Source: Candidatus Poribacteria bacterium (GTDB lineage: Bacteria; Poribacteria; WGA-4E; WGA-3G). Taken from it: DNA of 43,179 nt. The position numbers and the translations under genes are program-made. This document shows, one piece after another, positions 504 to 31,915 of the stretch (positions are counted from its first letter, which is position 1; every line of letters starts with the position of its first letter). The notes under the pieces are model-generated. The model did not search any database, had not been told where the DNA came from, and worked only from the letters and a program-made list of their open reading frames with translations. The stretch lies in the NCBI GenBank assembly GCA_012270795.1, contig JAAXHO010000215.1:1-43179 (forward strand), read 5' to 3'.

Positions 504-549
504 AATATTGATTTTAAAAAATGTCAACTAAAAAATCATATCGGGGTGC

Positions 550-727
550 GTAAAGTTTTTGCTTATGTCTGAACCAGGATTTTCAAGATTATCAGATTTT
601 CAGGATTTCCCTCAACAGGTTCTATTTCCAAAGTTGACATCAAAATGCATCAAAAATCCTTGATGGGGTAATCTTGGAAATCTGATAATCCTGCAAATCC
701 TGGTTCAGACATAAGCAAAAACTTTAC
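550..727. repeat. Long hairpin repeat, palindrome type C (GTCTGAACCAGG)
   Basis: Both ends read GTAAAGTTTTTGCTTATGTC or its complement, then GTCTGAACCAGGATTTTC with AATCCTGGTTCAGAC on the far side. Related palindromes lie at 7351-7526 and 16580-16713. The stem is long and the loop differs between copies. Confidence 0.8.
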
Positions 728-3132: not shown

Positions 3133-4140
3133 TCATCGGTGCCTCTGCTGAAGTGTGTTTGCGAAGTCTGGGTCTACTTCTCGTAGTTTTTTCAGTGCTT
3201 CTTTGGGTGTTTTTGCGTTTCTAAAGATGTGTGCGGCTTGCTGCATTCGCTTTGCACTGACGGGTGGTTTTTGCCCGGGTGTGATCAGTTTTTTGACGAG
3301 TTCTTGTGTCAAAAACTTTTGGACATCTGCTTCCGTTTTTATTGTCGCAACTTGATGTAGCTGCTGGACAAAGTTCTCAAACTGCTGTTTTTCTTGTTGA
3401 GCCATTTTTTGTGCGTGTTCATATCTTTGTTGTGCCCGTTGCCTTGCAACCGCACGAGAAGTCACGCCACCGTTTTTTGAAGCATCCGACACATTGCCAT
3501 CCTTATCCTCATCCGCAATCCCATCTGAAAGCGGGTCTCCTGGTTGAATCTTCGGCAGTTTTTGCGGTGCAGGCCCTGACTCCGCGGCAACATCGGGTTG
3601 AACAGGCACACTGTCTCCTGCCACACCCCGATTCTTTTGGGCGAGCGGCCCAAAACTGGGTTTCCCCGCAAGGATCCGGTTTATGGAATATCCGGGATCC
3701 GGCTGCGTGTATGATCTATCGGGATACGCTTCTATTAACTTCAGGGATTGCCGGTAATGTGCCAAAGCCTTGCTGTAATCCCCAAGGTTCTGATGTGCAT
3801 GCCCCAGATAGTAATGAATCTGTTCTGGATACGCACCATAATACGAGTTCATGCGATACATATCTACATACTTGAGTGCCTCTGTCCCGTAATGGATCGC
3901 CGCCTCCGGATAGATATGCATGCCCGCCCCCAATAACTCTCCGAGCAAACCTGGGGAGTCCGGATGATACGCCAACAACGGTTGGAGTTGATCGAAAAGC
4001 ACGGCATCATTATGAATCCACTCTCCGTTTTCATCACGCACTGCAAGAAGTCGTCGAGCGTAATATGTCTGTTGTGAATAGGGATCTGCCGCGATGGCAC
4101 GGTTCAGAAGGGCGACTCCTCTGTCCAATTTTCCGAGCAC
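3133..4140 (-). pseudogene. TPR-repeat protein, second copy, downstream fragment after a 1-base deletion
   Basis: This is the main body of a tandem duplicate of the gene at 4493-5800. It aligns throughout, with AALNRAIAADPYS-like TPR helices, GELLGAGMHIYPEAAIHYG and a C-terminal segment with KTEADVQKFLTQELVKKL and EVDPDFANTL. The ATG at 4140 is a chance codon. The frame is joined to the fragment 4104-4439 when one base is restored at about 4118-4119. TPR domains bind other proteins; the partner is unknown. The stop at 3133 lies just upstream of the protease gene, whose start is about 36 bases away, so the cluster may be one transcript. Confidence 0.75.
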
Positions 4141-4492: not shown

Positions 4493-5800
4493 TCAGCGAA
4501 CCCGCAGTGTGTTTGCGAAGTCTGGGTCTACTTCCCGAAGTTTTTTCATGCCTTCTGCAGGGGTTTTCGCGTTTCTAAAGATTTGGGAAGCCCGACGCAT
4601 TCGCTCCGCACTCGGACGCTTGACTGGTGCAGCTGCTGGTTTTGAACCTTCCAACTGTTTCACCAACTCTTGCGTCAAATACTTTTCAAAGTCTGCTTCC
4701 GTTTTTATTGTCGCGATCTGATGTAGCTGCTTCACAAAGTTCTCAAAACGTTTTTGTTCTGCTTGCGTCTTTTGTCGTGTGTGTTCGGACATTTTTTGTG
4801 CCTGTTGCCGCGCAACTGCACGCGGATCCACGCCATCGCTTGGCGATGCCCCCGGAACATCATCATCCGCATCCGCACCCCCATCAAAAAGGGGATCCCC
4901 CGGCTCAACACTCGGCAGTTCCCGCGGCACAGAGACAGACGCTGAACCAACAGAGGGCGCAACAGGCAACCCCCCCACAGCTTTTGAACGCACCTTTTGA
5001 GCCAGTGGCCCAAAACCCGGTTTCCCCGAAAGGATCCGGTTTATGGAATTTCTGGGGGTATCCGGCTGCATGTAAGCTCTATCCGGATACGATTCTATCA
5101 GTTTCAGGGATTGCCGGTGATGTTCCAAAGCTTTGCTGTAATCGCCAATGTTCTGATACGCAAAGCCCAGATAGTGATGAATACGTTCTGGGTACGCACC
5201 ATACCCCGAATTCATGCGATACATATCTACATACTTGAGTGCCTCTGTGCCGTAATGGATCGCCGCTTCAGGATAGATATGCATGCCCGCCCCCAACAAC
5301 TCTCCGAGCAAACCTGGGGAGTCGGGATGATACGCCAACAACGGTTGCAGCCGATCGAAAAGCACGGCATCATTATAAATCCACTCTCCGTTTTCATCAC
5401 GCATTGCGATACCTCTTCGTGTGTAATATGCACTTTTTGAATAGGGGTCTGCGGCGATGGCCCGGTTGAGGAGAGCGACTCCCTCTGCCCAATTTTTCGA
5501 GCGCACCCGATACGCGTAACTGTAGAATTTATCTAAGGGCATCGCTTTGCCGTCATGCATCACGGTGGCTGGTGCCTCGGGCACCGTTCTTTGCCACTGA
5601 TCCCCCTCCCAGTGGCCCGTCGCAAATGTCTCCCCTTGGGGTGGGGCTTTCAGAATAGGGGGCGCAGCCACCTGTTCCGGTTTGGGCAGACTGCCGGGCG
5701 GTTGCTCCGTATCTAAAGGGGGCCCCACATTGTAAAAAAACCAAACCATAAAGAGCATGACAAGCACACCCAGTGCCCAATAAAACTTTTGCCTTTTCAT
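4493..5800 (-). CDS. Membrane-anchored TPR-repeat protein, intact copy
   Basis: The protein has 435 residues. The start ATG follows AAAGGAGATTTTCTT. Residues 6-24 form a hydrophobic anchor with only a few charged residues before it, so the bulk should lie outside the cytoplasm. TPR-like helices run from about residue 95 to 260, including YLGFAYQNIGDYSKALEHH. Then come a low-complexity Ala/Pro/Asp segment and a helical C-terminal region with QAEQKRFENFVKQLHQIATI and AERMRRASQIFRNAKTP. I do not recognise the C-terminal domain. It is a tandem duplicate of 3133-4439 and lies 18 bases downstream of the GspC/PilP-like gene. Context suggests a scaffold for a secretion or envelope complex, but this is inference. 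Confidence 0.8.
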   Translation of the reverse strand: MKRQKFYWALGVLVMLFMVWFFYNVGPPLDTEQPPGSLPKPEQVAAPPILKAPPQGETFATGHWEGDQWQRTVPEAPATVMHDGKAMPLDKFYSYAYRVRSKNWAEGVALLNRAIAADPYSKSAYYTRRGIAMRDENGEWIYNDAVLFDRLQPLLAYHPDSPGLLGELLGAGMHIYPEAAIHYGTEALKYVDMYRMNSGYGAYPERIHHYLGFAYQNIGDYSKALEHHRQSLKLIESYPDRAYMQPDTPRNSINRILSGKPGFGPLAQKVRSKAVGGLPVAPSVGSASVSVPRELPSVEPGDPLFDGGADADDDVPGASPSDGVDPRAVARQQAQKMSEHTRQKTQAEQKRFENFVKQLHQIATIKTEADFEKYLTQELVKQLEGSKPAAAPVKRPSAERMRRASQIFRNAKTPAEGMKKLREVDPDFANTLRVR

Positions 5801-6962: not shown

Positions 6963-7107
6963 GCCATAGGTGTCAATTTAGGGGCTATTCTACCCCATTT
7001 CCCTCTTGTTGGAGGGGTTTCTAACCCCGATAGCAGAATGGAACGGCATAAAATCGGGGTTAGAAACCCCTCCAACAAGAGTTTCATTTCTTAAATTGAC
7101 ACCTATG
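6963..7107. mobile_element. MITE-like insertion with a 16-bp target duplication
   Basis: The terminal inverted repeats are CCATAGGTGTCAATTTA and its complement. The sequence GGTAAGAATCTATTCA occurs immediately before (6947-6962) and after (7108-7123). The related site in the left direct repeat (about 168-185) has a single GGAATCTATTCA with no insert, so it serves as an empty site. The interior is palindrome type B (7003-7081), starting CTCTTGTTGGAGGGG. No transposase is encoded. Confidence 0.8.
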
Positions 7108-7350
7108 GGTAAGAATCTATTCAACTAACCTAAGAGTGCCAGATCCGCGCATTTGCCGTTGCTCAGATCCTTCGTATACGGGATTCGGTTTGTGTGCTTG
7201 GAATTGAAAACCTTACCATGTCCGAAAATCTCTTATATTTTTGTCAAACCAAGTATTGTGTTTTTTAACTTAACGTCAGAAATTATATTATTGGATTCAA
7301 AAAATGTCAACTTAAAAATCATATCGGGGTGTGTAAAGTTTTTGTCACTT

Positions 7351-7900: not shown

Positions 7901-8043
7901 CTCAAGTTGCTACCTATTATTTGTTGGAGGGGTTTCTAACCCCGATTGATAACATAAAACAACAAATTTTGATGCGAATTGTCATAAATCGGGGTTAGAA
8001 ACCCCTCCAACAAGAGTATTCTAAAGTAGGTGGCAACTTAGGT
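7901..8043. mobile_element. MITE-like element, shell type M2, with palindrome type B
   Basis: The ends are CTCAAGTTGCTACCTA and TAGGTGGCAACTTAG. TATTCTAA is present on both sides (7893-7900 and 8044-8051) as a likely 8-bp target duplication. The interior is an inverted repeat (7921-8013) starting TTGTTGGAGGGGTTTC, the same core as at 7003-7081 and 31822-31894, which sit in different shells. Confidence 0.75.
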
Positions 8044-8114
8044 TATTCTAAAAAATTACAAAATCAAGATATTACCCGATTAATTTATTAATCTTCATAC
8101 AGGTTTTGCTGCTG

Positions 8115-8144
8115 AAAAAACCGTACCGTACGGTACGGTTTTTT
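8115..8144. repeat. Perfect 30-bp palindrome of CCGTAC units
   Basis: AAAAAACCGTACCGT is followed directly by its complement. Related words occur at 8151-8163 and 8248-8260. It resembles a terminator hairpin with a T tail on either strand, but no gene ends here on either side. It is more likely the arm of the larger element at 8115-8390. Confidence 0.7.
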
Positions 8145-8390
8145 CGGTTTACGGTACGGTTTTGTAAATTGGCTATGCCTCCAGTTTTCATAAGGGTTCA
8201 TCGGGGTTTTCTTGTAGTGATTTTTTGAATTTTTTTCATCGTTTTTTGGTACGGTTTTTTTGTTGGCGTTTTTCGTGTTTTTGCATTGTATATATTATAT
8301 ACGGTTTTTGATGGTGTTTGTAGTTTTTTGGGTGTCTGCTTATTGGGATTTCCAATAGATTTCCAATAGGTTTGGAGGTTGGTTATCGGA
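8115..8390. repeat. AT-rich inverted-repeat element, left copy
   Basis: A conserved block at about 8303-8390, including TAGTTTTTTGGGTGTCTGCT and ATTTCCAATAG units, is matched in the opposite orientation at 16790-16872. Outside that block, 8115-8127 is complementary to 8248-8260 (AAAAAACCGTACC with GGTACGGTTTTTT), giving a 13-bp helix around a loop of about 120 bases. Confidence 0.6.
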
Positions 8391-8453
8391 AAATCAGGAA
8401 TTTTTTTCTTGTGTTTTTTATTGTGTGTGATATACTACACGGAAAAAGTTTTA

Positions 8454-8567
8454 ATACCATTTCTATAAATTATGGTCTCATTGGGCAGTTGTTATCGTAG
8501 TCATTCTTTAGGACACAAACTGAAAGTTTGTGCTACAAAAAGAGACGTTATCAATTAGAAATGGTAT
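8454..8567. repeat. MITE-like element, shell type M1, alternative core
   Basis: The ends are ATACCATTTCTATAA and TTAGAAATGGTAT. The core is a different hairpin, GACACAAACTGAAAGTTTGTG, rather than the GGTAGGAGCG palindrome. It lies 88 bases upstream of the oxidoreductase start. Confidence 0.7.
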
Positions 8568-8654
8568 TAGATAGAGACAAACCAGTACTCAGATACCATA
8601 GAAGGTTTTCAAGACGACCATCTGAGTATATTCCAGAAAGAAAAGGATTATGTT

Positions 8655-9635
8655 ATGGTAAAATGTGCACTTATCAGCGGTAGAGGTATGGGCATGATGC
8701 ATGGTGGCAACTTCCACAATCATCCAGACGCAGAGGTTGTTGCAGTATGCGATATGGATCCTGGACTTCTTGAGAAAGCGAAGGAACATTTTGGTGTGCC
8801 TGGATATTCATCTATTGAAGACTTGTTGGCAAATTGTGATGCGGAACTCGTTCTATTGATAGTTAACGAGACGCGCCGCATCCCGCCATTGCGAGAGTTA
8901 CTTGATGCGGGAAGGAATGTATTCACAGAGAAGCCGCTATGTGGTTTACGGGGACAAGCGACAGTCCGGGAAGCTGACCTTGCGATTGCTGCCCCTGCGA
9001 TTGCGACTTGGCGCGAATCAGATCAGAAATTTGGTATTGATTTCAACTATCGGTTCATGCACCATTTCAAGAAACTCCATGATGATGTTGTGGAAGGTAG
9101 ATTGGGTGAAATCAAGATGGTACATGCCCGCGCTCACTTCAACTGTTGGTCACACATCATTGACCAGATACTCTGGAATATGGGTACACCTGAATGGGTG
9201 AGTGTTGTCGGGGATCCGAATGAGGGTGGTGGTTGGAAACGTCTGATACATATTGGATGGGAAAATGGTGTTGTCGGTACACTTACTGGCACGAACTTGT
9301 GGGGATATGATGACCATCCGCTGCGTGTTAAGATACTTGGTGATAAGTCTTACGCGGAAGCACGTGGTTTAGACGGTTCATATTTATTGCGGAAAGCGGG
9401 AAACTCTGAAATAGAGGAAAAATGGGAGAATGAACCCGACAAACCCGAAATGCCTGAGTCTTTTAAACGTATGGCTGACGGTGTCGTAAAAGCTATGCAA
9501 AACGATCAACCGTTCCCTGCAGATGGAGAAGCTGCATGGAATGAACTTCTGTTTGAAGCTGCGGTGCATCGGTCTGCATTACAAAATGGTGCGCGCGTGT
9601 TTCTTGATGATGTGGACAGAGCTGCGTTTGTTTAA
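8655..9635 (+). CDS. Gfo/Idh/MocA family NAD(P)-dependent oxidoreductase
   Basis: The protein has 326 residues, near the usual family length. The start follows AAAAGGATTATGTT. The N-terminal Rossmann segment reads ALISGRGMGMMHGGNFHNHP, a variant of the GxGxxG loop, then EVVAVCDMD, where Asp would favour NAD. The family signature EKP is present in VFTEKPLCG near residue 94. The C-terminal half has the alpha/beta substrate domain, with DFNYRFMHHFKK and later HIGWENGVVGTLTGTNLWG. These enzymes oxidise or epimerise sugars, inositols and related polyols. Its neighbours (PhyH-like dioxygenases and a sulfatase) suggest a catabolic role. The substrate cannot be told. Confidence 0.88.
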   Translation: MVKCALISGRGMGMMHGGNFHNHPDAEVVAVCDMDPGLLEKAKEHFGVPGYSSIEDLLANCDAELVLLIVNETRRIPPLRELLDAGRNVFTEKPLCGLRGQATVREADLAIAAPAIATWRESDQKFGIDFNYRFMHHFKKLHDDVVEGRLGEIKMVHARAHFNCWSHIIDQILWNMGTPEWVSVVGDPNEGGGWKRLIHIGWENGVVGTLTGTNLWGYDDHPLRVKILGDKSYAEARGLDGSYLLRKAGNSEIEEKWENEPDKPEMPESFKRMADGVVKAMQNDQPFPADGEAAWNELLFEAAVHRSALQNGARVFLDDVDRAAFV

Positions 9636-9670
9636 ATTGTATAAAATCTACCATAAACAAACATATTCTT

Positions 9671-11548
9671 ATGAAAAACAAATTATTGTCAATAGCGATA
9701 ACACTCTGTATGACATTGACCTTTACAACCAGCCTCCTTGCCCAAGACACATCCAAATGGGGTTTACCCGATGGTGCTATAGCGAGGCTCGGAAAAGGTG
9801 ATATCAATGAGATTCGGTATTCACCAGACGGGACTAAACTTGCTGTGGCAAGTAGTATTGGTGTATGGATATATGATGCTAAGACAGGTGCAGAACTGAA
9901 CCTATTGACTGGACATAAAAAAGATGTAATGTGCGTATCTTTTAGTCCTGATGGTAGCACCCTCGCCAGTGGAAGCATTGACACTACGATCCGTCTATGG
10001 GATGCAAACACCGGCAAGCATCTCCTCACACTTTGGAGACATGGGTGGGGTGTCATTAGTGTTTCCTTTAGTCCGGATGGAAGCACACTTGCCAGTGGCA
10101 GTATAGACAATACCGTCTGTCTATGGCATGTAGACACAGGCAGGTTTCTCCGCAGACTTTACGGACATGCGAAGAATGTTAGGAGTGTATCTTTTAGTCC
10201 TGATGGAATTCTACTTGCCAGTGGCAGTAATGACAAAACCATCCAATTATGGGATGTGAATACTGGGAAGCAACTCCGCATCCTCAAAGGTCATACGCAA
10301 TCGGTTGTGAGTGTATCCTTTAGTCCTGACGGTAGCACCTTAGCGAGTGGGAGTTGGGAAGGCATTATACGTCTATGGGATGTGAATACTGGGCAACAAC
10401 TCCGCACTCTTGAAGGTCATAAAGGACAGATTTACAGTGTATCCATTAGTGCTGATGGTAACCTACTCACAAGTTGCGGTAATTATGGTACTATCCGTGT
10501 ATGGAATGTGAACACAGGGGAGCATCTCCGGACCCTTGAAGGGTTTACAGGTTGGGTCAAAAGTCTATCATTTAGTCCTGATAAAAGCATCCTTGCAAGC
10601 GGAGGTGCGGACGGTACTATCCGTATTTGGAATGCAAACAGTGGTGATCATATCCGCACGATTGAAGGTCATACGGATAGGGTCTGGAGCGTATCGTTTA
10701 GTCCTGATGGTGAGACACTTGCAAGTGGAAGTGGTAATCTTGATAACACGATCCATTTATGGAATGTAAGTACGGGCGACCATCTTCGACAGCTTAAAGG
10801 ACATACAGGTTTGGTCTGGAGCGTATCGTTTAGTCCTGATGGTAACACCCTCGCCAGTGGTGCAAGTGAGCACATGGAGTCAAACGTCCATCTATGGAAT
10901 GCAAACACTGGAGAACATCTTCACACACTTAAAGGGCATGAATATTCAATCTACAGTGTGTCTTTTAGTCCTGATGGTAGTATCCTTGCAAGCGGGTGTT
11001 TTGACGACACCGTACGCCTATGGCATGTCAAATCCGGAACGCATCTCCGCACCTTAACCGCGGAGGAATCATATAATTTCTACAGTGTATCCTTTAGTGC
11101 TGATGGCAGCACTATCGCAGGTGGGAATTCTCTCAGCAGTATACCTATATGGGATGTGACCACAGGCAAGCATCTCCGCTCACTTGAAGGACATAGAGGT
11201 GATATCAATAGCGTATCTTTTAGTGTTGATGGTAGTATCCTTGCAAGTGGAAGTGGTGACGGTACCATTCGTATATGGAATGCAAATACTGGTAAGCATC
11301 TCCGGACCCTTGAAGGACACAAAGGCGATGTCTTATGCGTATCATTTAGTCCTGATGGTAGCACCATTGTAAGTTCGGGTGAGGACATGACCATTCGTAT
11401 ATGGAATGCAAACACTGGAGAAGCTATCCTCACTTTTATGGGACATACGTCTTGGGTCCGAAGCGTAGCGTTTAGTCCTGATGGCAGTACCATTGCAAGT
11501 GGGAGTGAAGACTGTTCTGTGATCTTATGGAAATACTTATTGGATTAG
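9671..11548 (+). CDS. Secreted WD40-repeat protein with 14 repeats
   Basis: The protein has 625 residues. Residues 1-25 are a signal peptide (KNKLLSIAITLCMTLTFTTS then LLAQ), so the product should be periplasmic or exported. I count 14 WD40 units, each near VxSVSFSPDGSTLASGS followed by TIRLWDxNTGxxLRTLxGH. This fits two seven-bladed propellers. The DNA of the units is very similar (TTTAGTCCTGATGGTAGCAC and close variants), which indicates recent repeat expansion or gene conversion. No strong ribosome binding site precedes the start, which lies 35 bases after the oxidoreductase. WD40 propellers are protein-binding platforms; the partner is unknown. Confidence 0.88.
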   Translation: MKNKLLSIAITLCMTLTFTTSLLAQDTSKWGLPDGAIARLGKGDINEIRYSPDGTKLAVASSIGVWIYDAKTGAELNLLTGHKKDVMCVSFSPDGSTLASGSIDTTIRLWDANTGKHLLTLWRHGWGVISVSFSPDGSTLASGSIDNTVCLWHVDTGRFLRRLYGHAKNVRSVSFSPDGILLASGSNDKTIQLWDVNTGKQLRILKGHTQSVVSVSFSPDGSTLASGSWEGIIRLWDVNTGQQLRTLEGHKGQIYSVSISADGNLLTSCGNYGTIRVWNVNTGEHLRTLEGFTGWVKSLSFSPDKSILASGGADGTIRIWNANSGDHIRTIEGHTDRVWSVSFSPDGETLASGSGNLDNTIHLWNVSTGDHLRQLKGHTGLVWSVSFSPDGNTLASGASEHMESNVHLWNANTGEHLHTLKGHEYSIYSVSFSPDGSILASGCFDDTVRLWHVKSGTHLRTLTAEESYNFYSVSFSADGSTIAGGNSLSSIPIWDVTTGKHLRSLEGHRGDINSVSFSVDGSILASGSGDGTIRIWNANTGKHLRTLEGHKGDVLCVSFSPDGSTIVSSGEDMTIRIWNANTGEAILTFMGHTSWVRSVAFSPDGSTIASGSEDCSVILWKYLLD

Positions 11549-11556
11549 GTTTTACT

Positions 11557-12315
11557 ATGAAACATTCACGAATATATTATGATTATACCTTCGGGGAAAA
11601 AGAACGTAAAGCATTAGATCATGTAGGACATTATGTTCTACCAGGCATCCTGACAGCTGAAGCACAAGAACGATTGACAGAATCCCTTGCCTATATTCAA
11701 TCGTTAATACCAAATGGCAAGAAGGGGCATGAACCTAATCGGTTTTCTGCGGAGTTTGATAGTTATCTGGAAAGTATCATCGCGCATCCGCAGATGCTGG
11801 AACTTGCTCGTAAAGTACTCGGTGAGGATATCCGATATGACCATTGTGTAAGTCTCAATCGTTCTGGTGGTAATGGGGGTATCGGTTGGCACAGCCACGG
11901 ATATTCAGATGATGATCTGAGATATGGATTTGTCCGTATCTTCTTTTATGTCAATGGATTTGATGTAGATGATGGAGGATTGAAAGCGGTCCCTGGTAGT
12001 CATCTTTATCGTGATGGTAGAATTCATGGCGGGACAGATGAAGCGTTGAGGAAAGGATGGTTGGTAGGTAAAACCCATCCTGAAACGGGTGAACCCCTAC
12101 AGATTCAACAGCTTTCCGTGCCGTCTGGAACGGTCATATTGATGTGGACGCATGCAGCACATGCCGTAACCCCCAGAAAACCAGAGAGTGATACGCGCTG
12201 GTGTGTTGTTTATGCTTATCGTAATCCCGGTAAACCATCAGGCGCACGGTGGATTTCACCCGAATTTGAACATAAGCAGATACCTGGCGCAGAAGAGTTG
12301 ATGTCCCTATATTAA
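11557..12315 (+). CDS. Phytanoyl-CoA dioxygenase (PhyH) family protein, copy 1
   Basis: The start is set at the ATG at 11557, because the protein is then 252 residues and aligns end to end with the next gene. An ATG at 11527 lies inside the WD40 gene. The fold is that of Fe(II)/2-oxoglutarate oxygenases. The metal motif region is GGIGWHSHGYSDDD (His112, His114), the distal His is in MWTHAAHAVTPR (about His202), and Arg207 follows for 2-oxoglutarate. The usual HxD appears here as HxH. Family members hydroxylate varied small molecules. Its start is 9 bases after the WD40 stop, so the genes are likely co-transcribed. Confidence 0.85.
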   Translation: MKHSRIYYDYTFGEKERKALDHVGHYVLPGILTAEAQERLTESLAYIQSLIPNGKKGHEPNRFSAEFDSYLESIIAHPQMLELARKVLGEDIRYDHCVSLNRSGGNGGIGWHSHGYSDDDLRYGFVRIFFYVNGFDVDDGGLKAVPGSHLYRDGRIHGGTDEALRKGWLVGKTHPETGEPLQIQQLSVPSGTVILMWTHAAHAVTPRKPESDTRWCVVYAYRNPGKPSGARWISPEFEHKQIPGAEELMSLY

Positions 12316-12522
12316 CCCAAGTTGCTACCAATGTAGCACAAACTGCCACTTTGTGTGCTAAGATGCACAAACTGGATGAAGATTAACTTATTCTTTCGGT
12401 AATTCTAATTTTCCCCAAACTCGGTAGGTGCGGTTTCCTAACCGCACCGATCATCGCTAAGATATTACCGAATTATTTAGTTAATCTTCATCCAGTTTGT
12501 GCTACATTGGTGGCAACTTAGG
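12316..12522. mobile_element. Triple-nested MITE-like element between the PhyH copies
   Basis: The outer M2 ends are CCCAAGTTGCTACCA and TGGTGGCAACTTAGG, extended by TGTAGCACAAACTG and its complement. Inside is an M3 shell (about 12376-12493) with ends GATGAAGATTAA and TTAATCTTCATC. Inside that is GGTGCGGTTTCCTAACCGCACC, a near-perfect hairpin. The element begins right after the stop of copy 1 and ends just before the binding site of copy 2. Confidence 0.75.
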
Positions 12523-12533
12523 TTGAGGATTTT

Positions 12534-13292
12534 ATGTCACAAGACCTGATTTTTCATGATTATACCTTCGGTGATAAAGAACGAAAAGAAATGGATCATG
12601 ATGGACATTTTGTGCTACCCGGTCTCCTGACTGCTGATGCGCGGAAACGATTGACAGATTCGTTGGTCCACATTGAATCGCTGCTACCGGAAGGTAAACA
12701 AGGCTATGAACCTAATCGCTTTGCTGCGGAGTTTGATAGTTATCTGGGAAGTCTGATTGGACATCCTCAAATGCTCAAACTTGCGCGGGAATTGCTTGGT
12801 GAAGAAATCCGATACGATCACTGTGTGAGTCTCAATCGGCCCGGTGGCAATGGAGGAATTGGATGGCATAGTCACGGATACTCCGAAGATGATGCGCGCT
12901 ACGGTTATGTCCGTATCTTCTTCTATGTCAACGGATTTGACGCGGATGACGGTGGTTTGAAGGTGGTTCCCGGTAGCCATCTTTACCGCGATCCCAAAAT
13001 ACAAGGACGAACTGATGCGGATTTGCTCGAGGGATGGATGAAAGACAAAACGCATCCTGAAACTGGAAAACCTTTAGAGATTCAGAAAATGTCAGTGCCA
13101 CCAGGAACAGTCGTATTGATGTGGACGCATGCAGCACACGCTGTAACGCCAAGGAAACAGGATAGCGATACCAGATGGACAGTAGTTTATGGATATTATA
13201 AACCGGGTAAAGATCCTGGTGAAAGGTGGATCAGCCCAGAATTTGAAAGAAAACAGATACCGGGAACAGAAGGAATAATGTCTCCCTACTAA
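12534..13292 (+). CDS. Phytanoyl-CoA dioxygenase (PhyH) family protein, copy 2
   Basis: The protein has 252 residues and is clearly a paralogue of 11557-12315, with the same length and conserved blocks such as DYTFG, FAAEFDSYL, RYDHCVSLNR and VRIFFYVNGF. The metal region is again WHSHGYSEDD, so the His in place of Asp is shared and not a single-copy mutation. The distal THAAHAVTPRKQ and the final ISPEFERKQIPG are conserved. The ATG follows GAGGATTTT. The sulfatase gene starts 32 bases downstream. The duplication may allow two related substrates; this is inference. Confidence 0.85.
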   Translation: MSQDLIFHDYTFGDKERKEMDHDGHFVLPGLLTADARKRLTDSLVHIESLLPEGKQGYEPNRFAAEFDSYLGSLIGHPQMLKLARELLGEEIRYDHCVSLNRPGGNGGIGWHSHGYSEDDARYGYVRIFFYVNGFDADDGGLKVVPGSHLYRDPKIQGRTDADLLEGWMKDKTHPETGKPLEIQKMSVPPGTVVLMWTHAAHAVTPRKQDSDTRWTVVYGYYKPGKDPGERWISPEFERKQIPGTEGIMSPY

Positions 13293-13324
13293 GGAAACGA
13301 TACGGTTCTCATATATTTACTATC

Positions 13325-14743
13325 ATGCCAGACAAGAAACCACATATCTTATTACTTATCAACGATGAGCATCGCCCCGATGTCCTGCCGATTGAGGGGG
13401 ATACTGCTATTCGTACCCCGTACCTGTTTCGGTTTATGGATGAGGGTGTCTACTTCCGCAATGCTTATACGCCATCTCCGGTCTGTGTTCCAGCAAGGCA
13501 AAGTTTCCTTTCGGGTCTCTATCCACGTAACTCCGGTTGTCTAAACTTTGGCGATCCGATGCCGACTGAAGTCCGAACCATTCCAGGGCATCTTGGAAAC
13601 TACGGATACTATTCATGCTGTGCTGGTAAAATGCACTTTGTTGGAACTGATGTTATGCATGGGTGGTACGAACGTATCGGACGCGATATTATCGGTAACA
13701 ATGGTTATCCATACCGCGCTGTAAAGGATGAACATACCGCACAGATTGAACGCGAACCAGGCACTGGCATGAAACGGGATAAGACTGCACAAGAGATACG
13801 CGATGCACAACCCGGTATAGGGCATTGGATGCTACACGATCAATACAATGTGGACGGTGCTGTTCTGTTTCTTGAGGAGTACTTTGTTAATGCCTCTTAT
13901 GATCGTCCCAAGGCAAGTCCTCTCTGTCTTGCAGTCAGCCTCATCGCACCACATTATCCGTATCAGTGTCCGCTTGATTTATTCAACTATTACATGCAGC
14001 GTGTAGAACCGATTATTGAAGAACCAAACGAAAAGTTTGAATACAACAACTTTTTTAGAGTCAAGGTTGGTAAGGATGTTACTTACAGACAAGCACACCG
14101 CGCGACTGCTGCTTACTACGGTATGATCGAGTGGATGGATGCACAATTTGGTCGGGTGATAGAGAAATTGGAACATCTGAATGTACTTGAAGATTTTGTT
14201 GTTGTCTTTCTTTCTGACCACGGTGAGATGCTTGGCACTAAGGGACTTTGGGAGAAACAGAGTTATTTTGAACCCTCTGCACGTGTGCCGTTTTCAATCT
14301 GGTATCCAGAAAAGTTTGGACGCGAACAGAAAATAGTCCATGAGAATGTGTCGTTAGTGGATCTGTTTCCAACGTTGTGTGAGTTAGCAGAAGTACCTGC
14401 CCCCGAAGAACTGGACGGTCAATCCCTTGTCCCGCTTATTAAAGGAAAAGCAGATGCATGGGATGATACTGTCTATAGCGAATTGTGGAGTGCTCAGAAT
14501 GGACCTTCCGTGATGGTCAAGGAAGGTAGTTTAAAATATATCCGTTTCAACAACAATAAGGGTTGGCCCGAACAACTCTTTGATTTGTCTAATGACCCAG
14601 ATGAATGGAACAACCTTATTGATGATCCTAATTATGTAGATGCACTTGCAAGGCTTCAAGCGAAGGTAGACGCTTTACCGCCGCCACGAAAGAAGGATCA
14701 AAACAACACATTCATTGACCCACATCGACCGATTCCTGCTTAG
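13325..14743 (+). CDS. Type I sulfatase (formylglycine-dependent arylsulfatase family)
   Basis: The protein has 472 residues. The N-terminal metal site is in LLLINDEHRPDVLP. The signature Cys-x-Pro-x-Arg is at Cys54-Val-Pro-Ala-Arg58, inside PSPVCVPARQSFLSGLYP. This Cys is converted to formylglycine by a separate maturase in active family members. VVFLSDHGEMLGTKGLWEK supplies further metal and active-site residues. No signal peptide is seen, so it may be cytoplasmic, as in many marine degraders. It removes sulfate esters, and the substrate could be a sulfated sugar or another organic sulfate. It follows the PhyH pair closely. A short hairpin after the stop may end transcription from both sides. 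Confidence 0.9.
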   Translation: MPDKKPHILLLINDEHRPDVLPIEGDTAIRTPYLFRFMDEGVYFRNAYTPSPVCVPARQSFLSGLYPRNSGCLNFGDPMPTEVRTIPGHLGNYGYYSCCAGKMHFVGTDVMHGWYERIGRDIIGNNGYPYRAVKDEHTAQIEREPGTGMKRDKTAQEIRDAQPGIGHWMLHDQYNVDGAVLFLEEYFVNASYDRPKASPLCLAVSLIAPHYPYQCPLDLFNYYMQRVEPIIEEPNEKFEYNNFFRVKVGKDVTYRQAHRATAAYYGMIEWMDAQFGRVIEKLEHLNVLEDFVVVFLSDHGEMLGTKGLWEKQSYFEPSARVPFSIWYPEKFGREQKIVHENVSLVDLFPTLCELAEVPAPEELDGQSLVPLIKGKADAWDDTVYSELWSAQNGPSVMVKEGSLKYIRFNNNKGWPEQLFDLSNDPDEWNNLIDDPNYVDALARLQAKVDALPPPRKKDQNNTFIDPHRPIPA

Positions 14744-14774
14744 AAAAGTGGGGTAAAAAAAGATTACTTTTCTA
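14741..14774. terminator. Possible hairpin between convergent genes
   Basis: TAGAAAAGT and ACTTTTCTA form a 9-bp stem that spans the ends of the sulfatase and ATPase genes. The stem is AT-rich and overlaps the ATPase stop codon, so termination is uncertain. Confidence 0.3.
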
Positions 14775-16175
14775 AAATAGATCGTTTGGACTAAGTAACA
14801 AAATACCCTCTTTTTTCGCACGTTCCTTTAGGGAATCAGTAAAACTGCCTGCAGAAAACAGAATATATCTTGAGTTTTCATTCCATGGCAGTCCGATTTT
14901 ATTGGATTTTTCTATTAGTCGGTCAAGAACGTTTTCTCCCACAGGTTGATTCCACCATTTGCATTCTCCAAACCAGTGGCTGCCATCAATATTCTCTGTC
15001 AAAATATCAATTTCAAGATTTGATTCCCAATGTGCCCCAATCTGTTTAGGAGCTATTTCTATTTTCTCTTTCCAGTAGTGTTTTATGTATTGCTTGCTTA
15101 TGTCTTCAAAGATATTCCCCATGAAATCAGAAAAGTGTGGGGCAATCATCTGCTGAAAGACTAAATCTGCATTCCCAGATTCAATCAAACTTCTGTTGGG
15201 TTGAATAAAACGATACCAAAACCTCAGGTAGTTATCGGCAATTTTGTAAATACCCTTTCTGCTTTTCTGAGGTGCAAGTTCAGTTATCGGCGTATCACGT
15301 TTGATAAACCCTAACTCTCTAAGCACACTAAGGTATTTACTTGCATTTGTAGCCTCAAGGCCAACCCGTTGTGAAATCTCATTTAGTCTCGTTGCACCTC
15401 CTGCAATTGCCTGCATTAAACTTGCGTAAGTCCTCGGATCTCGGAGTTCCATACGCAACAAAAAGTTAACCTCATCAAATAAATATGCGTGAGGTGACAG
15501 CAGTTCTTCTATTATAGCTTGTTTTATAGTCCTTTTTGATGGGTGTTGAGATTGAGGTGTGAATCGGTTCAAATATGCTGGTATTCCACCAAGTATTCCA
15601 TATACTTCCAATTTTTCTTTGCTGGAATAATTTGGAAAAAAACTTCCTGCATCCCGATAGTTTAATGGCATCAACTGTAATTGTCCTGTTCGTCTACCGT
15701 ACAATGGAGATCGTTCTGCTAAGACTTCTCGTTCCATAAAACTTATCTGCGAACCACATAGTATCAAGAATAGTTTGCTATTATTTCCATGTTCGTCCCA
15801 AAAACGTTGAATGAGTGATGGGAGTGCCGCATTATCTTCACAGAGATATTGAAATTCATCAAGGACTAAAACCAGTTTTTTATCTTGAGACTTTTGAGCG
15901 AAATATATTAAAGCGGATTCCCAATCATTAAATGTAATATTTTGAAGTAAAGGATCATCAATCACATGCCCCGCAACTTCTGTTATCTGTCGGAGATGGT
16001 CATTTTCCCTCAATTGACTTGCTATAAAGTAGATGCTCCATTTATCTTTACAGAAGTGTTTTAGAAGTTCTGTTTTTCCTACGCGTCGTCTGCCGTATAG
16101 CACAAAAAACTCCGCCTGCCTTGCCCGATACATTTTCTCTAACGCATCAATTTCTTGCTCTCTGTTTATGAACAT
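14772..16175 (-). CDS. ATPase_2-type ATP-binding protein with C-terminal DUF234 (PD-(D/E)XK-like) domain
   Basis: The protein has 467 residues. The start follows GAGAGGAGAAAC. Walker A is GRRRVGKTE (residues 28-36). Walker B is LVLVLDEFQYL with Asp106 and Glu107. A sensor-like LILCGSQISFME and the family stretch LYGRRTGQLQLMPL follow. A winged-helix-like segment around residues 250-285 includes ATRLNEISQRVGLEATNASKYL, seen as LNEISQRVGLE and YLSVLREL. The C-terminal domain has EIDIL and GECKWW, the Asp and Glu-x-Lys pattern of PD-(D/E)XK nuclease folds. Members of this family are widespread and often orphan, and their cellular role is not settled. It is transcribed toward the sulfatase and stands alone. 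Confidence 0.88.
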   Translation of the reverse strand: MFINREQEIDALEKMYRARQAEFFVLYGRRRVGKTELLKHFCKDKWSIYFIASQLRENDHLRQITEVAGHVIDDPLLQNITFNDWESALIYFAQKSQDKKLVLVLDEFQYLCEDNAALPSLIQRFWDEHGNNSKLFLILCGSQISFMEREVLAERSPLYGRRTGQLQLMPLNYRDAGSFFPNYSSKEKLEVYGILGGIPAYLNRFTPQSQHPSKRTIKQAIIEELLSPHAYLFDEVNFLLRMELRDPRTYASLMQAIAGGATRLNEISQRVGLEATNASKYLSVLRELGFIKRDTPITELAPQKSRKGIYKIADNYLRFWYRFIQPNRSLIESGNADLVFQQMIAPHFSDFMGNIFEDISKQYIKHYWKEKIEIAPKQIGAHWESNLEIDILTENIDGSHWFGECKWWNQPVGENVLDRLIEKSNKIGLPWNENSRYILFSAGSFTDSLKERAKKEGILLLSPNDLF

Positions 16176-16209
16176 GTTTCTCCTCTCTATAATTGTTGTA
16201 GCACAACCT

Positions 16210-16327
16210 GTATGAAGATTAAGTAATTAAATCGGAAATTTGGCATAGAAGTCCGGTGCGGTTAGGAAACCGCACTTACCGAGTTTGGGGGAAACGAAAA
16301 TTACCGATTTATTTTTTTAATCTTCAT
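16210..16327. repeat. MITE-like element, shell type M3
   Basis: The ends are ATGAAGATTAAGTAATTAAA and TTTTTAATCTTCAT, with CGG/CCG inner arms. The inner hairpin GGTGCGGTTAGGAAACCGCAC is the inverse form of the one nested at 12376-12493. It lies directly upstream of the ATPase gene. Partial M3 ends also occur near 8080-8095. Confidence 0.7.
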
Positions 16328-16492
16328 TTAGGTTGTGTTCCGTTTCTGCACAACTTAACAGGTTATGCTACAGAAATGTCCAAGTAATTACATGCTTTGC
16401 TTTATTATACTTTAGATTATTATAATCTAAAGTATAATAAATTGTCAAGTCTAATTTTTATAGCATTAAGTGAGATATGTAAAGTTTTCATT

Positions 16493-16768
16493 ATGAAGAT
16501 TAATTTATTAATTGGGTAATCTTAATTTTATCCTTGACATGCCAATTTGAAACAATAGAACCTATTCTGGGTTGTTATGTTCTTTGTTGTCTGAACCAGG
16601 ATTTTCAGGATTATCAGATTTTCAGGATTTACCTTATCAAGGACCTTAAGATACGTGTTTAGGTTCTTTTTCGAAATCTGAAAATCCTGAAAATCCTGGT
16701 TCAGACAAAGAACAAGTTATACTACACAATAAGAATAAGACATTACCCATTTATTTTTTAATCTTCAT
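16493..16768. repeat. MITE-like element, shell type M3, carrying palindrome type C
   Basis: The ends are ATGAAGATTAA and TTAATCTTCAT, with GGGTAAT/ATTACCC arms. The interior (16580-16713) is a type C hairpin starting TTCTTTGTTGTCTGAACC. This is the same core as at 550-727, but there it is not in an M3 shell. Confidence 0.75.
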
Positions 16769-16783
16769 TATGAAAATCGAAAG

Positions 16784-17075
16784 CCGTCACCCTCCCAAAC
16801 CCATTGGACATCTATTGGAAATCCCAATAAGCAATCATCCAAAAAACTACAAGTCCCATCAAAAATCAGATATAATATAATAAATTCAAAATACACAAAA
16901 AGACACTAAACAAAACTAACAGAAAAACACACAAAAAAAACGAAAAAAACCATTTAGTTGTTTTTTTCAAAATTTCGTGAAAATTGAAAACCACCATAAA
17001 CCCATACTATGACACAATCGAGAACACTTATGAAAAAATGGAAAAAAACACGAAAAAAACAACTAAAAAATTCCA
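16784..17075. repeat. AT-rich inverted-repeat element, right copy
   Basis: The block 16790-16872 is an inverted match to 8303-8390. Further out, GAAAACCACCATAAACCC (near 16988) matches the complement of GGGTTCATCGGGGTTTTC (near 8194). Bases 16953-16968 pair with 17052-17067 (TTTAGTTGTTTTTTTC with its complement), a 16-bp helix around 83 bases. The helix words differ completely from the left copy, but pairing is kept. No gene is seen in 16176-17500. Confidence 0.6.
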
Positions 17076-17277: not shown

Positions 17278-17354
17278 TGTAGGTCGGGTAGAGCGTAGCG
17301 ACACCCGACAGGAACGAAACGTGTCGGGTGTCGCTACGCTCTACCCGACCTACA
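17278..17354. repeat. Palindrome type D (GTAGGTCGGGTAGAG)
   Basis: TGTAGGTCGGGTAGAGCGTA and its complement bracket a short loop, with arms of about 33 bp. The same arm sequence begins the repeats at 21951 and, in part, 23924. Those contain the hairpin mini-element, whereas this copy does not. Confidence 0.8.
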
Positions 17355-31800: not shown

Positions 31801-31915
31801 TTCAATTGTCGAGTTTACTTATTGTTGGAGGGATTTCTAACCCTGATTTCAGATACACAACATGAAAAATCGGGGTTGGAAACCCCTCCAACAAAGATAT
31901 TTTGTGACAATTGAA
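31801..31915. repeat. Inverted-repeat element with palindrome type B in a third shell
   Basis: The ends are TTCAATTGTC and its complement GACAATTGAA. The core at 31822-31894 is palindrome B, starting TTGTTGGAGGGATTTC. Apart from this and the terminator, the gap 31661-31979 holds nothing I recognise. Confidence 0.7.

What the first reader, a model, noticed from the sequence alone, without database searches (positions are those of the whole stretch)
8115..17075. Inverted pair of AT-rich elements with swapped helix words but conserved pairing
8303-8390 and 16790-16872 match in opposite orientation, as does a second short block (near 8194 and 16988). Each copy has a long-range helix at its outer part, 8115-8127 with 8248-8260 and 16953-16968 with 17052-17067. 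The helix sequences are unrelated (CCGTACC versus AACAACTAAA) yet each is perfectly complementary. Conserved frame plus replaced, still-paired arms is the pattern of a structured RNA or a cruciform element. The pair also flanks the oxidoreductase-to-ATPase block of about 8 kb.
Basis: partly seen in the sequence, partly recalled or inferred. Interest (0 to 1): 0.6.

Follow-up and report, generated by a model that had tools for sequence, protein, structure and literature searches.

The report
Structured repeat tied to terminase gene
Two matching sequence patches in this sponge-symbiont bacterium's DNA are copies of a widespread small mobile element whose end carries short "words" that change over time but keep pairing with each other, and full-length relatives of the element carry a gene for a virus-type DNA-packaging motor that stands alone, without its virus.

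Summary
In detail: two inverted copies (8117-8375 minus, 16795-17067 plus), each with exactly complementary arms (14 and 16 bp; 0/300 shuffles). They are two of about 46-50 dispersed copies in this Candidatus Poribacteria genome. The family fills the genus (13 to over 55 copies in nine of 18 genomes) and was not found outside its family.

A copy has a left end with a -10 box at fixed spacing and a right-end module: word W1, a conserved frame, word W2, then the reverse-complement W' with a U-tract. It succeeds for the family: across 44 copies from two congeners W1 and W2 both track W' (34-35 two-sided changes against 9-10 shuffled; slid controls at most 2). At one orthologous site all three words changed together.

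In congeners the same left end drives a solitary phage-type terminase large-subunit gene, multicopy and under strong purifying selection. In G008 the word module follows its stop codon, and short copies are that element without the gene.

Best reading: non-autonomous derivatives of a terminase-bearing mobile element with a base-paired, terminator-like end. Mobilisation by the terminase is inferred, not shown.

The parts
8112..8375 (-). Copy 1 (class B), whole element as recognised: left end at 8375, right end (hairpin) at about 8112
   Evidence: inverted repeat I1; 59 matches in own genome; family model hit 8117-8257 minus, 117.5 bits (this copy was among the 15 sequences the model was built from)
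8341..8357 (-). Left-end core palindrome TATTGGAAATCCCAATA
   Evidence: 17-mer found 52 times at up to 2 mismatches in own genome, reversed control 1
8294..8299 (-). -10-like box TATAAT, 58 nt after the core start
   Evidence: same spacing of 57-59 nt in nearly all intact copies of classes A, B and C and upstream of the terminase gene in G003/G017; no -35 found
8248..8260 (-). Word W1 (AAAACCGTACC): 5' arm of the long-range helix
   Evidence: exact complement of 8115-8127; W1:W' covaries in the family
8178..8204 (-). Conserved frame (..GATGAACCCTTATGAAAACTGG..)
   Evidence: aligned across five genomes; class A profile hits 8154-8210, E=1.4e-4
8153..8162 (-). Word W2 (AAACCGTACC)
   Evidence: W2:W' covaries in the family
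8132..8141 (-). Word W3 (AAACCGTACC), present in class B
8115..8127 (-). Inverted word W' (GGTACGGTTTTTT) with U-tract; with W3 forms a 14-bp terminator-like hairpin
   Evidence: RNA fold -21.2 kcal/mol, z -4.5; terminator-like scan hits on both strands, 4 found against 0.4 expected
16790..17075 (+). Copy 2 (class C), whole element as recognised
   Evidence: class C copies L026, L030, L070, L074 in own genome and L115, L123 in G013
16813..16829 (+). Left-end core palindrome TATTGGAAATCCCAATA
16871..16876 (+). -10-like box TATAAT
16953..16968 (+). 5' arm TTTAGTTGTTTTTTTC
   Evidence: exact complement of 17052-17067; shared by the other class C copies
16996..17025 (+). Frame ATAAACCCATACTATGACACAATCGAGAAC
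   Evidence: shared by class C copies; resemblance to the class B frame not significant
17052..17067 (+). 3' arm GAAAAAAACAACTAAA

Best explanation
The two patches are copies of a non-autonomous mobile element derived from a larger element whose only gene is a solitary phage-type terminase large subunit (TerL). Left end: a promoter-like block from which the congeners' TerL gene starts, in three congeners with an ATG directly after the -10 box. Right end: a module in which an inverted word W' with a U-tract can pair with a nearby word (terminator-like hairpin) or with the distant word W1 (long-range helix). The words drift, but all partners drift together, so base pairing in a single strand (RNA, or DNA during transfer) is what is kept. 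Shown: family, copy numbers, pairing constraint, shared ends with TerL, selection on TerL, a site empty in one congener. Inferred: that the module is transcribed and ends the transcript, and that TerL recognises the structured end and spreads the element in trans. The molecular steps of movement are unknown.
For: About 46-50 copies in own genome. The family model finds 28-55+ copies in seven of the 18 genus genomes, 13 in two more, 3-5 in five genomes of one sister genus, and none in the 24 genomes outside the family. -10 box at constant spacing. Covariation: W2:W' 34 two-sided cells against 9.1 shuffled and W1:W' 35 against 10.2, 0/500 each; across five genomes 13 against 4.1 and 10 against 3.7. 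Orthologous copies in G008/G014 differ in all three words and remain paired. Left end shared with TerL: 27 of 28 nt with G003, and 127 nt at 80-92% with about 18 ORF-less copies in G008/G014. Word module 95% alike right after the TerL stop in G008; modules 0.6-2.1 kb upstream of five other TerL copies, three of which share one duplicated unit. TerL multicopy: six intact copies in complete genome G009, dN/dS 0.03-0.11 among those compared, neighbours not phage structural genes. Empty site in G010.
Against: Own genome has no TerL, so copies here are old or mobilised otherwise. Only one TerL copy is joined directly to a module (L158); two other G008 copies lack it, and in G009/G003 the nearby module lies upstream on the opposite strand. 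Class A copies carry terminal repeats GGGTGTGTAAAGTTTTTG, which points to an ordinary DDE transposase for that sub-class. No target duplication or exact element boundary was established. Class C (copy 2) shares only the left end significantly. At one orthologous site W1 and W2 changed without W'. No -35 box and no transcript data.
Confidence: 0.5

Rival explanations
1. Ordinary MITE-like repeat with a terminator-like hairpin, mobilised by a DDE transposase through terminal repeats such as GGGTGTGTAAAGTTTTTG. The pairing is kept because the hairpin works as a transcription terminator or insulator; the terminase link is only a shared promoter.
For: 272 sites of that terminal repeat in own genome, reversed control 0; class A copies lie exactly between two of them, 418 bp in L035. 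Pneumococcal SPRITE repeats (AAAA/TTTT ends, 18-bp duplex, U-rich tract) are a precedent (PMC3049150).
Against: Class B and C copies, both window copies included, have no adjacent terminal repeats. G008 short copies share both the left end and the right module with a TerL gene. W1, 100 nt away, also covaries with W', which a terminator alone does not need. No IS256-type transposase in own genome (other families were not searched).
Confidence: 0.3
2. The words are binding sites of a sequence-specific DNA-binding protein (iteron- or operator-like). W1, W2 and W' agree because one protein reads all of them; pairing is a by-product.
For: At the L199/L198 orthologous pair W1 and W2 changed alike while W' did not; W1 and W2 agree at the middle position in 41 of 44 modules (counted); class B has three direct words.
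Against: Four word types coexist in one genome pair, which would need several proteins of different specificity. The word is always followed by a T-tract on the inverted side. Compensation at several positions across genomes is what cis pairing predicts.
Confidence: 0.13
3. The module encodes a short peptide, and the conserved frame is a reading frame.
For: Short open frames from the leaderless ATG run through some modules (sequence).
Against: Single-base insertions and deletions are common between copies, the open frame differs from copy to copy, and the strand is so poor in T that long open frames are expected by chance.
Confidence: 0.04
4. The two copies bound a composite transposon of about 8 kb carrying the oxidoreductase-to-ATPase block.
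For: Inverted, outward-pointing orientation.
Against: The copies are of different sub-classes at 73% identity; copies are spread singly over the genome; no terminal duplication was found.
Confidence: 0.02

Closest known systems
SPRITE and BOX repeats of Streptococcus pneumoniae (PMC3049150)
   Same: AT-rich, dispersed, many copies, modular (BOX), predicted stem-loop if transcribed, terminator-like duplex with U-rich tract (SPRITE), nested with other repeats
   Different: no link to a terminase gene is described there; here a word occurs two to four times, with W1 and W2 both covarying with W'; unrelated sequence and host
Bacterial MITEs such as Correia elements (review PMC10969869)
   Same: short, AT-rich, intergenic, with promoter-like sequences; class A copies have terminal inverted repeats
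   Different: class B and C copies lack terminal repeats; the candidate autonomous partner carries TerL and no transposase
Phage terminase large subunit (HK97-type structure 5oea; PHROG 5653)
   Same: homologous ATPase and nuclease regions; prophage and viral relatives at 57-68% identity
   Different: solitary and multicopy, no portal or capsid genes beside it, and a lineage-specific N-terminal extension of about 200 residues absent from the viral relatives, which instead have a separate small HTH gene upstream
IS200/IS605 elements and their palindrome-associated derivatives (from general knowledge)
   Same: subterminal hairpins, no long terminal repeats, ORF-less derivatives outnumber full copies
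   Different: no HUH transposase gene was seen in the TerL element, and the right-end words vary with compensation; the genome was not searched for HUH transposases

Membership tests
MITE | short, ORF-less, many dispersed copies | tested here: met
MITE | terminal inverted repeats | tested here: inconclusive
   present for class A copies; absent beside both window copies
MITE | target-site duplication | tested here: inconclusive
   flanks read by eye in several copies; none convincing
MITE | autonomous partner with transposase sharing the ends | tested here: inconclusive
   partner sharing both ends carries TerL, no transposase; Transposase_mut absent from own genome; other transposase families not searched
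Terminase large subunit | sequence homology to known TerL | tested here: met
   PHROG E=1e-19, PDB profile E=1e-6 to 5oea; Pfam Terminase_3 below its cut-off
Terminase large subunit | Walker A and candidate catalytic aspartates of the RNase H-like nuclease | tested here: met
   GGTYDAGKT, SIDWG, VDSAD and HGIDSTAY invariant in eight copies
Terminase large subunit | lies in a phage packaging cluster | tested here: not met
   neighbours are cellular genes and one DDE transposase
Terminase large subunit | terminase fold | tested here: inconclusive
   AlphaFold model unusable, pLDDT 33
Rho-independent terminator | G+C-containing stem followed by U-tract | tested here: met
   copy 1; conserved in A1 and A3; not met by the short-loop scan for copy 2
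Known Rfam RNA family | match above gathering score | tested here: not met
   0 matches in the window
BOX/SPRITE | sequence homology to pneumococcal repeats | not tested
   analogy only
IS200/IS605 derivatives | HUH (Y1) transposase recognising the hairpins | not tested
   no search for Y1 transposases was made

The most novel reading that the evidence does not exclude
A terminase large subunit has left its phage and become the sole enzyme of a transposable element in Poribacteria. It recognises a structured right-end RNA or single-stranded DNA whose specificity words diversify while keeping cis pairing, and it mobilises dozens of gene-less copies in trans.
Probability: 0.3. Interest if true: 0.87.

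Novelty: new variant of a known kind. Interest (0 to 1): 0.62.

Why it matters
Terminases are known as packaging motors of tailed phages and herpesviruses. A stand-alone, multicopy terminase under purifying selection that shares both ends with dozens of gene-less repeats would be a new way to make a mobile element. The repeat family also gives an unusually clean natural record of words that change while their pairing is kept, at orthologous sites in sister genomes, which makes the base-pairing hypothesis directly testable.

Tried and rejected
Composite transposon of 8 kb: rejected (different sub-classes, ordinary genes, single copies elsewhere). Chance pairing in AT-rich DNA: rejected (0/300 shuffles; covariation). 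Known RNA family: no Rfam hit. IS256-type transposase behind the GGGTGTGTAAAG ends: no Transposase_mut in own genome. Coding frame: considered because translations of the frame look alike, dropped because of single-base indels and inconsistent frames. AlphaFold model of TerL: unusable. Tree of the modules without their words: too few columns for resolved branches, so the 13-16 word changes at the middle positions are indicative only. Orthology of copy 1 with the element upstream of the same oxidoreductase gene in G008: not established, because the next gene differs. Paper searches for a terminase linked to transposons or MITEs, and for Poribacteria repeats: nothing relevant found.

Full report
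Observation. The inverted pair 8218-8375 / 16795-16952 is real and is the longest inverted repeat in the window. Both sets of arms are exactly complementary and far outside dinucleotide-shuffle expectation, and both regions fold better than shuffles. In copy 1 (minus strand) the word AAACCGTACC occurs three times directly (8248-8257, 8153-8162, 8132-8141) and once inverted (8118-8127).

Family in the own genome. BLAST with copy 1 gives 59 matches and the core 17-mer TATTGGGATTTCCAATA occurs 52 times at up to 2 mismatches, 46 of them at up to 1 (reversed control 1). Read on the core strand, intact copies have the core, a TATAAT box 57-59 nt after its start, an A/C-rich body and a right-end module. 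Three module classes exist: B (CCGTACC words, copy 1), A (CATACCAC palindromes) and C (copy 2 and several others). Class A copies are bounded by GGGTGTGTAAAGTTTTTG inverted repeats, a repeat end found 272 times in the genome. Copies 1 and 2 are not so bounded.

Family in relatives. Congener G013 has 32 core hits. Profiles built from class B recognise modules of G003 (E=1e-12), G009 (6e-11) and G008/G014 (4e-6, full length), whereas class C modules have no significant relative outside their class. A covariance model from 15 modules of five genomes finds 50 copies in the own genome, 28-55+ in six congeners (G002, G003, G008, G009, G013, G014), 13 each in G015 and G017, 3-5 in five genomes of a sister genus, and none in the 24 genomes outside the family. 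Copy 1 was among the sequences the model was built from, so its own hit is not independent evidence; an independent G008/G014 profile finds copy 1 over its full length at E=0.003.

Pairing. In 44 distinct modules of G008/G014 the words occur as ACGTACC, ACGAACC, ACGCACC/T and ACGTACA. W2:W' has 34 cells changed on both sides against 9.1 in shuffles and W1:W' 35 against 10.2, with 0/500 shuffles reaching either value, and structures slid by one to three columns give at most 2. Across five genomes four of eleven W2:W' pairs show two-sided changes, and W1:W' behaves alike. In class A a sub-group carries CTTACC/GGTAAG in place of CATACC/GGTATG. G008 and G014 are about 93% identical and share insertions. 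At one shared site all three words differ (GCACC, GCACC, GGTGC against GAACC, GAACC, GGTTC) and pairing is intact in both. At another, W1 and W2 differ but W' does not; at two more only one word differs. Gene conversion between copies can contribute to such patterns and is not excluded. For one of these sites G010 has the empty arrangement.

Terminase link. In G003 and G017 the left-end block (AACCTATTGGATATCTATTGGAAATC...TATAAT) sits directly before a 641-657 aa gene that is a phage terminase large subunit by PHROG and PDB profiles. It is multicopy in the genus: six intact copies in the complete genome G009, with dN 0.007-0.019 and dS 0.17-0.27 among the four copies compared. Its neighbours are cellular genes, unlike the prophage and viral relatives at 57-68% identity, which keep a portal-type gene next door. 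In G008 the first 127 nt of the terminase's upstream region are 80-92% identical to the left part of about 18 gene-less copies in G008/G014. One terminase copy is followed about 30 nt after its stop by a word module 95% alike to the others, and another contig ends just where that module should begin. In G009 and G003, five terminase copies have a module 0.6-2.1 kb upstream on the opposite strand, three of them sharing one duplicated unit. Within the genus, seven of nine genomes with 13 or more modules also have terminase matches, against two of nine others (one-sided Fisher p about 0.03, computed by hand). The own genome has none.

Mechanism. The evidence supports a family of gene-less mobile elements that share ends with a terminase element and carry a right end kept under a pairing constraint. 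That the right end acts in RNA (as terminator and possibly as a W1/W2 switch), and that the terminase acts on it, are inferences. The main rival is an ordinary MITE with a terminator-like hairpin, mobilised by an unidentified DDE transposase.

Comparison. The nearest described repeats are pneumococcal SPRITE and BOX (PMC3049150) and bacterial MITEs in general (PMC10969869). No description of a terminase-linked repeat was found in the searchable papers; subscription journals and preprints were not searchable. The organisms are Candidatus Poribacteria (record titles of two congeners).

Noticed in passing
own genome, 272 sites; window 544-561, 7327-7344: Terminal repeat GGGTGTGTAAAGTTTTTG defines a very large MITE population with several different interiors; its transposase is not identified (no Transposase_mut in the genome).
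   Followed up: partly
12365-12502 and 16202-16337: Two inverted copies of another palindromic repeat (ATTACCGAATTATTTAGTTAATCTTCAT...), 79% alike over 141 nt; its end also abuts copy 1 at 8071-8110.
   Followed up: no
7921-8013, 7006-7082, 31822-31898: Further palindromic repeat TTGTTGGAGGGGTTTCTAACCCC...; another (17278-17354) is a perfect 33-bp inverted repeat with an 11-nt loop.
   Followed up: no
L002 (G000:C228), about 49101-49495: In the nearest relative of copy 1 another palindromic element (ACAGGACTTACGC...GCGTAAGTCCTG) has inserted into the -10 box.
   Followed up: no
L242 (G008, upstream of the orthologue of the 8655-9635 oxidoreductase): The same gene has an element of this family upstream in the same orientation, with another word type; the next gene differs, so shared or independent insertion is open.
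   Followed up: partly
P0001 residues 1-200 and homologues: The solitary terminases carry a variable, helix-rich N-terminal extension of two or more types within one genome (G009); viral relatives lack it.
   Followed up: no
3133-4140 and 4493-5800 (minus): Tandem duplicated genes with a period of about 1.36 kb, 74-88% alike.
   Followed up: no
9671-11548: Long WD40 protein made of 126-bp tandem repeats.
   Followed up: no
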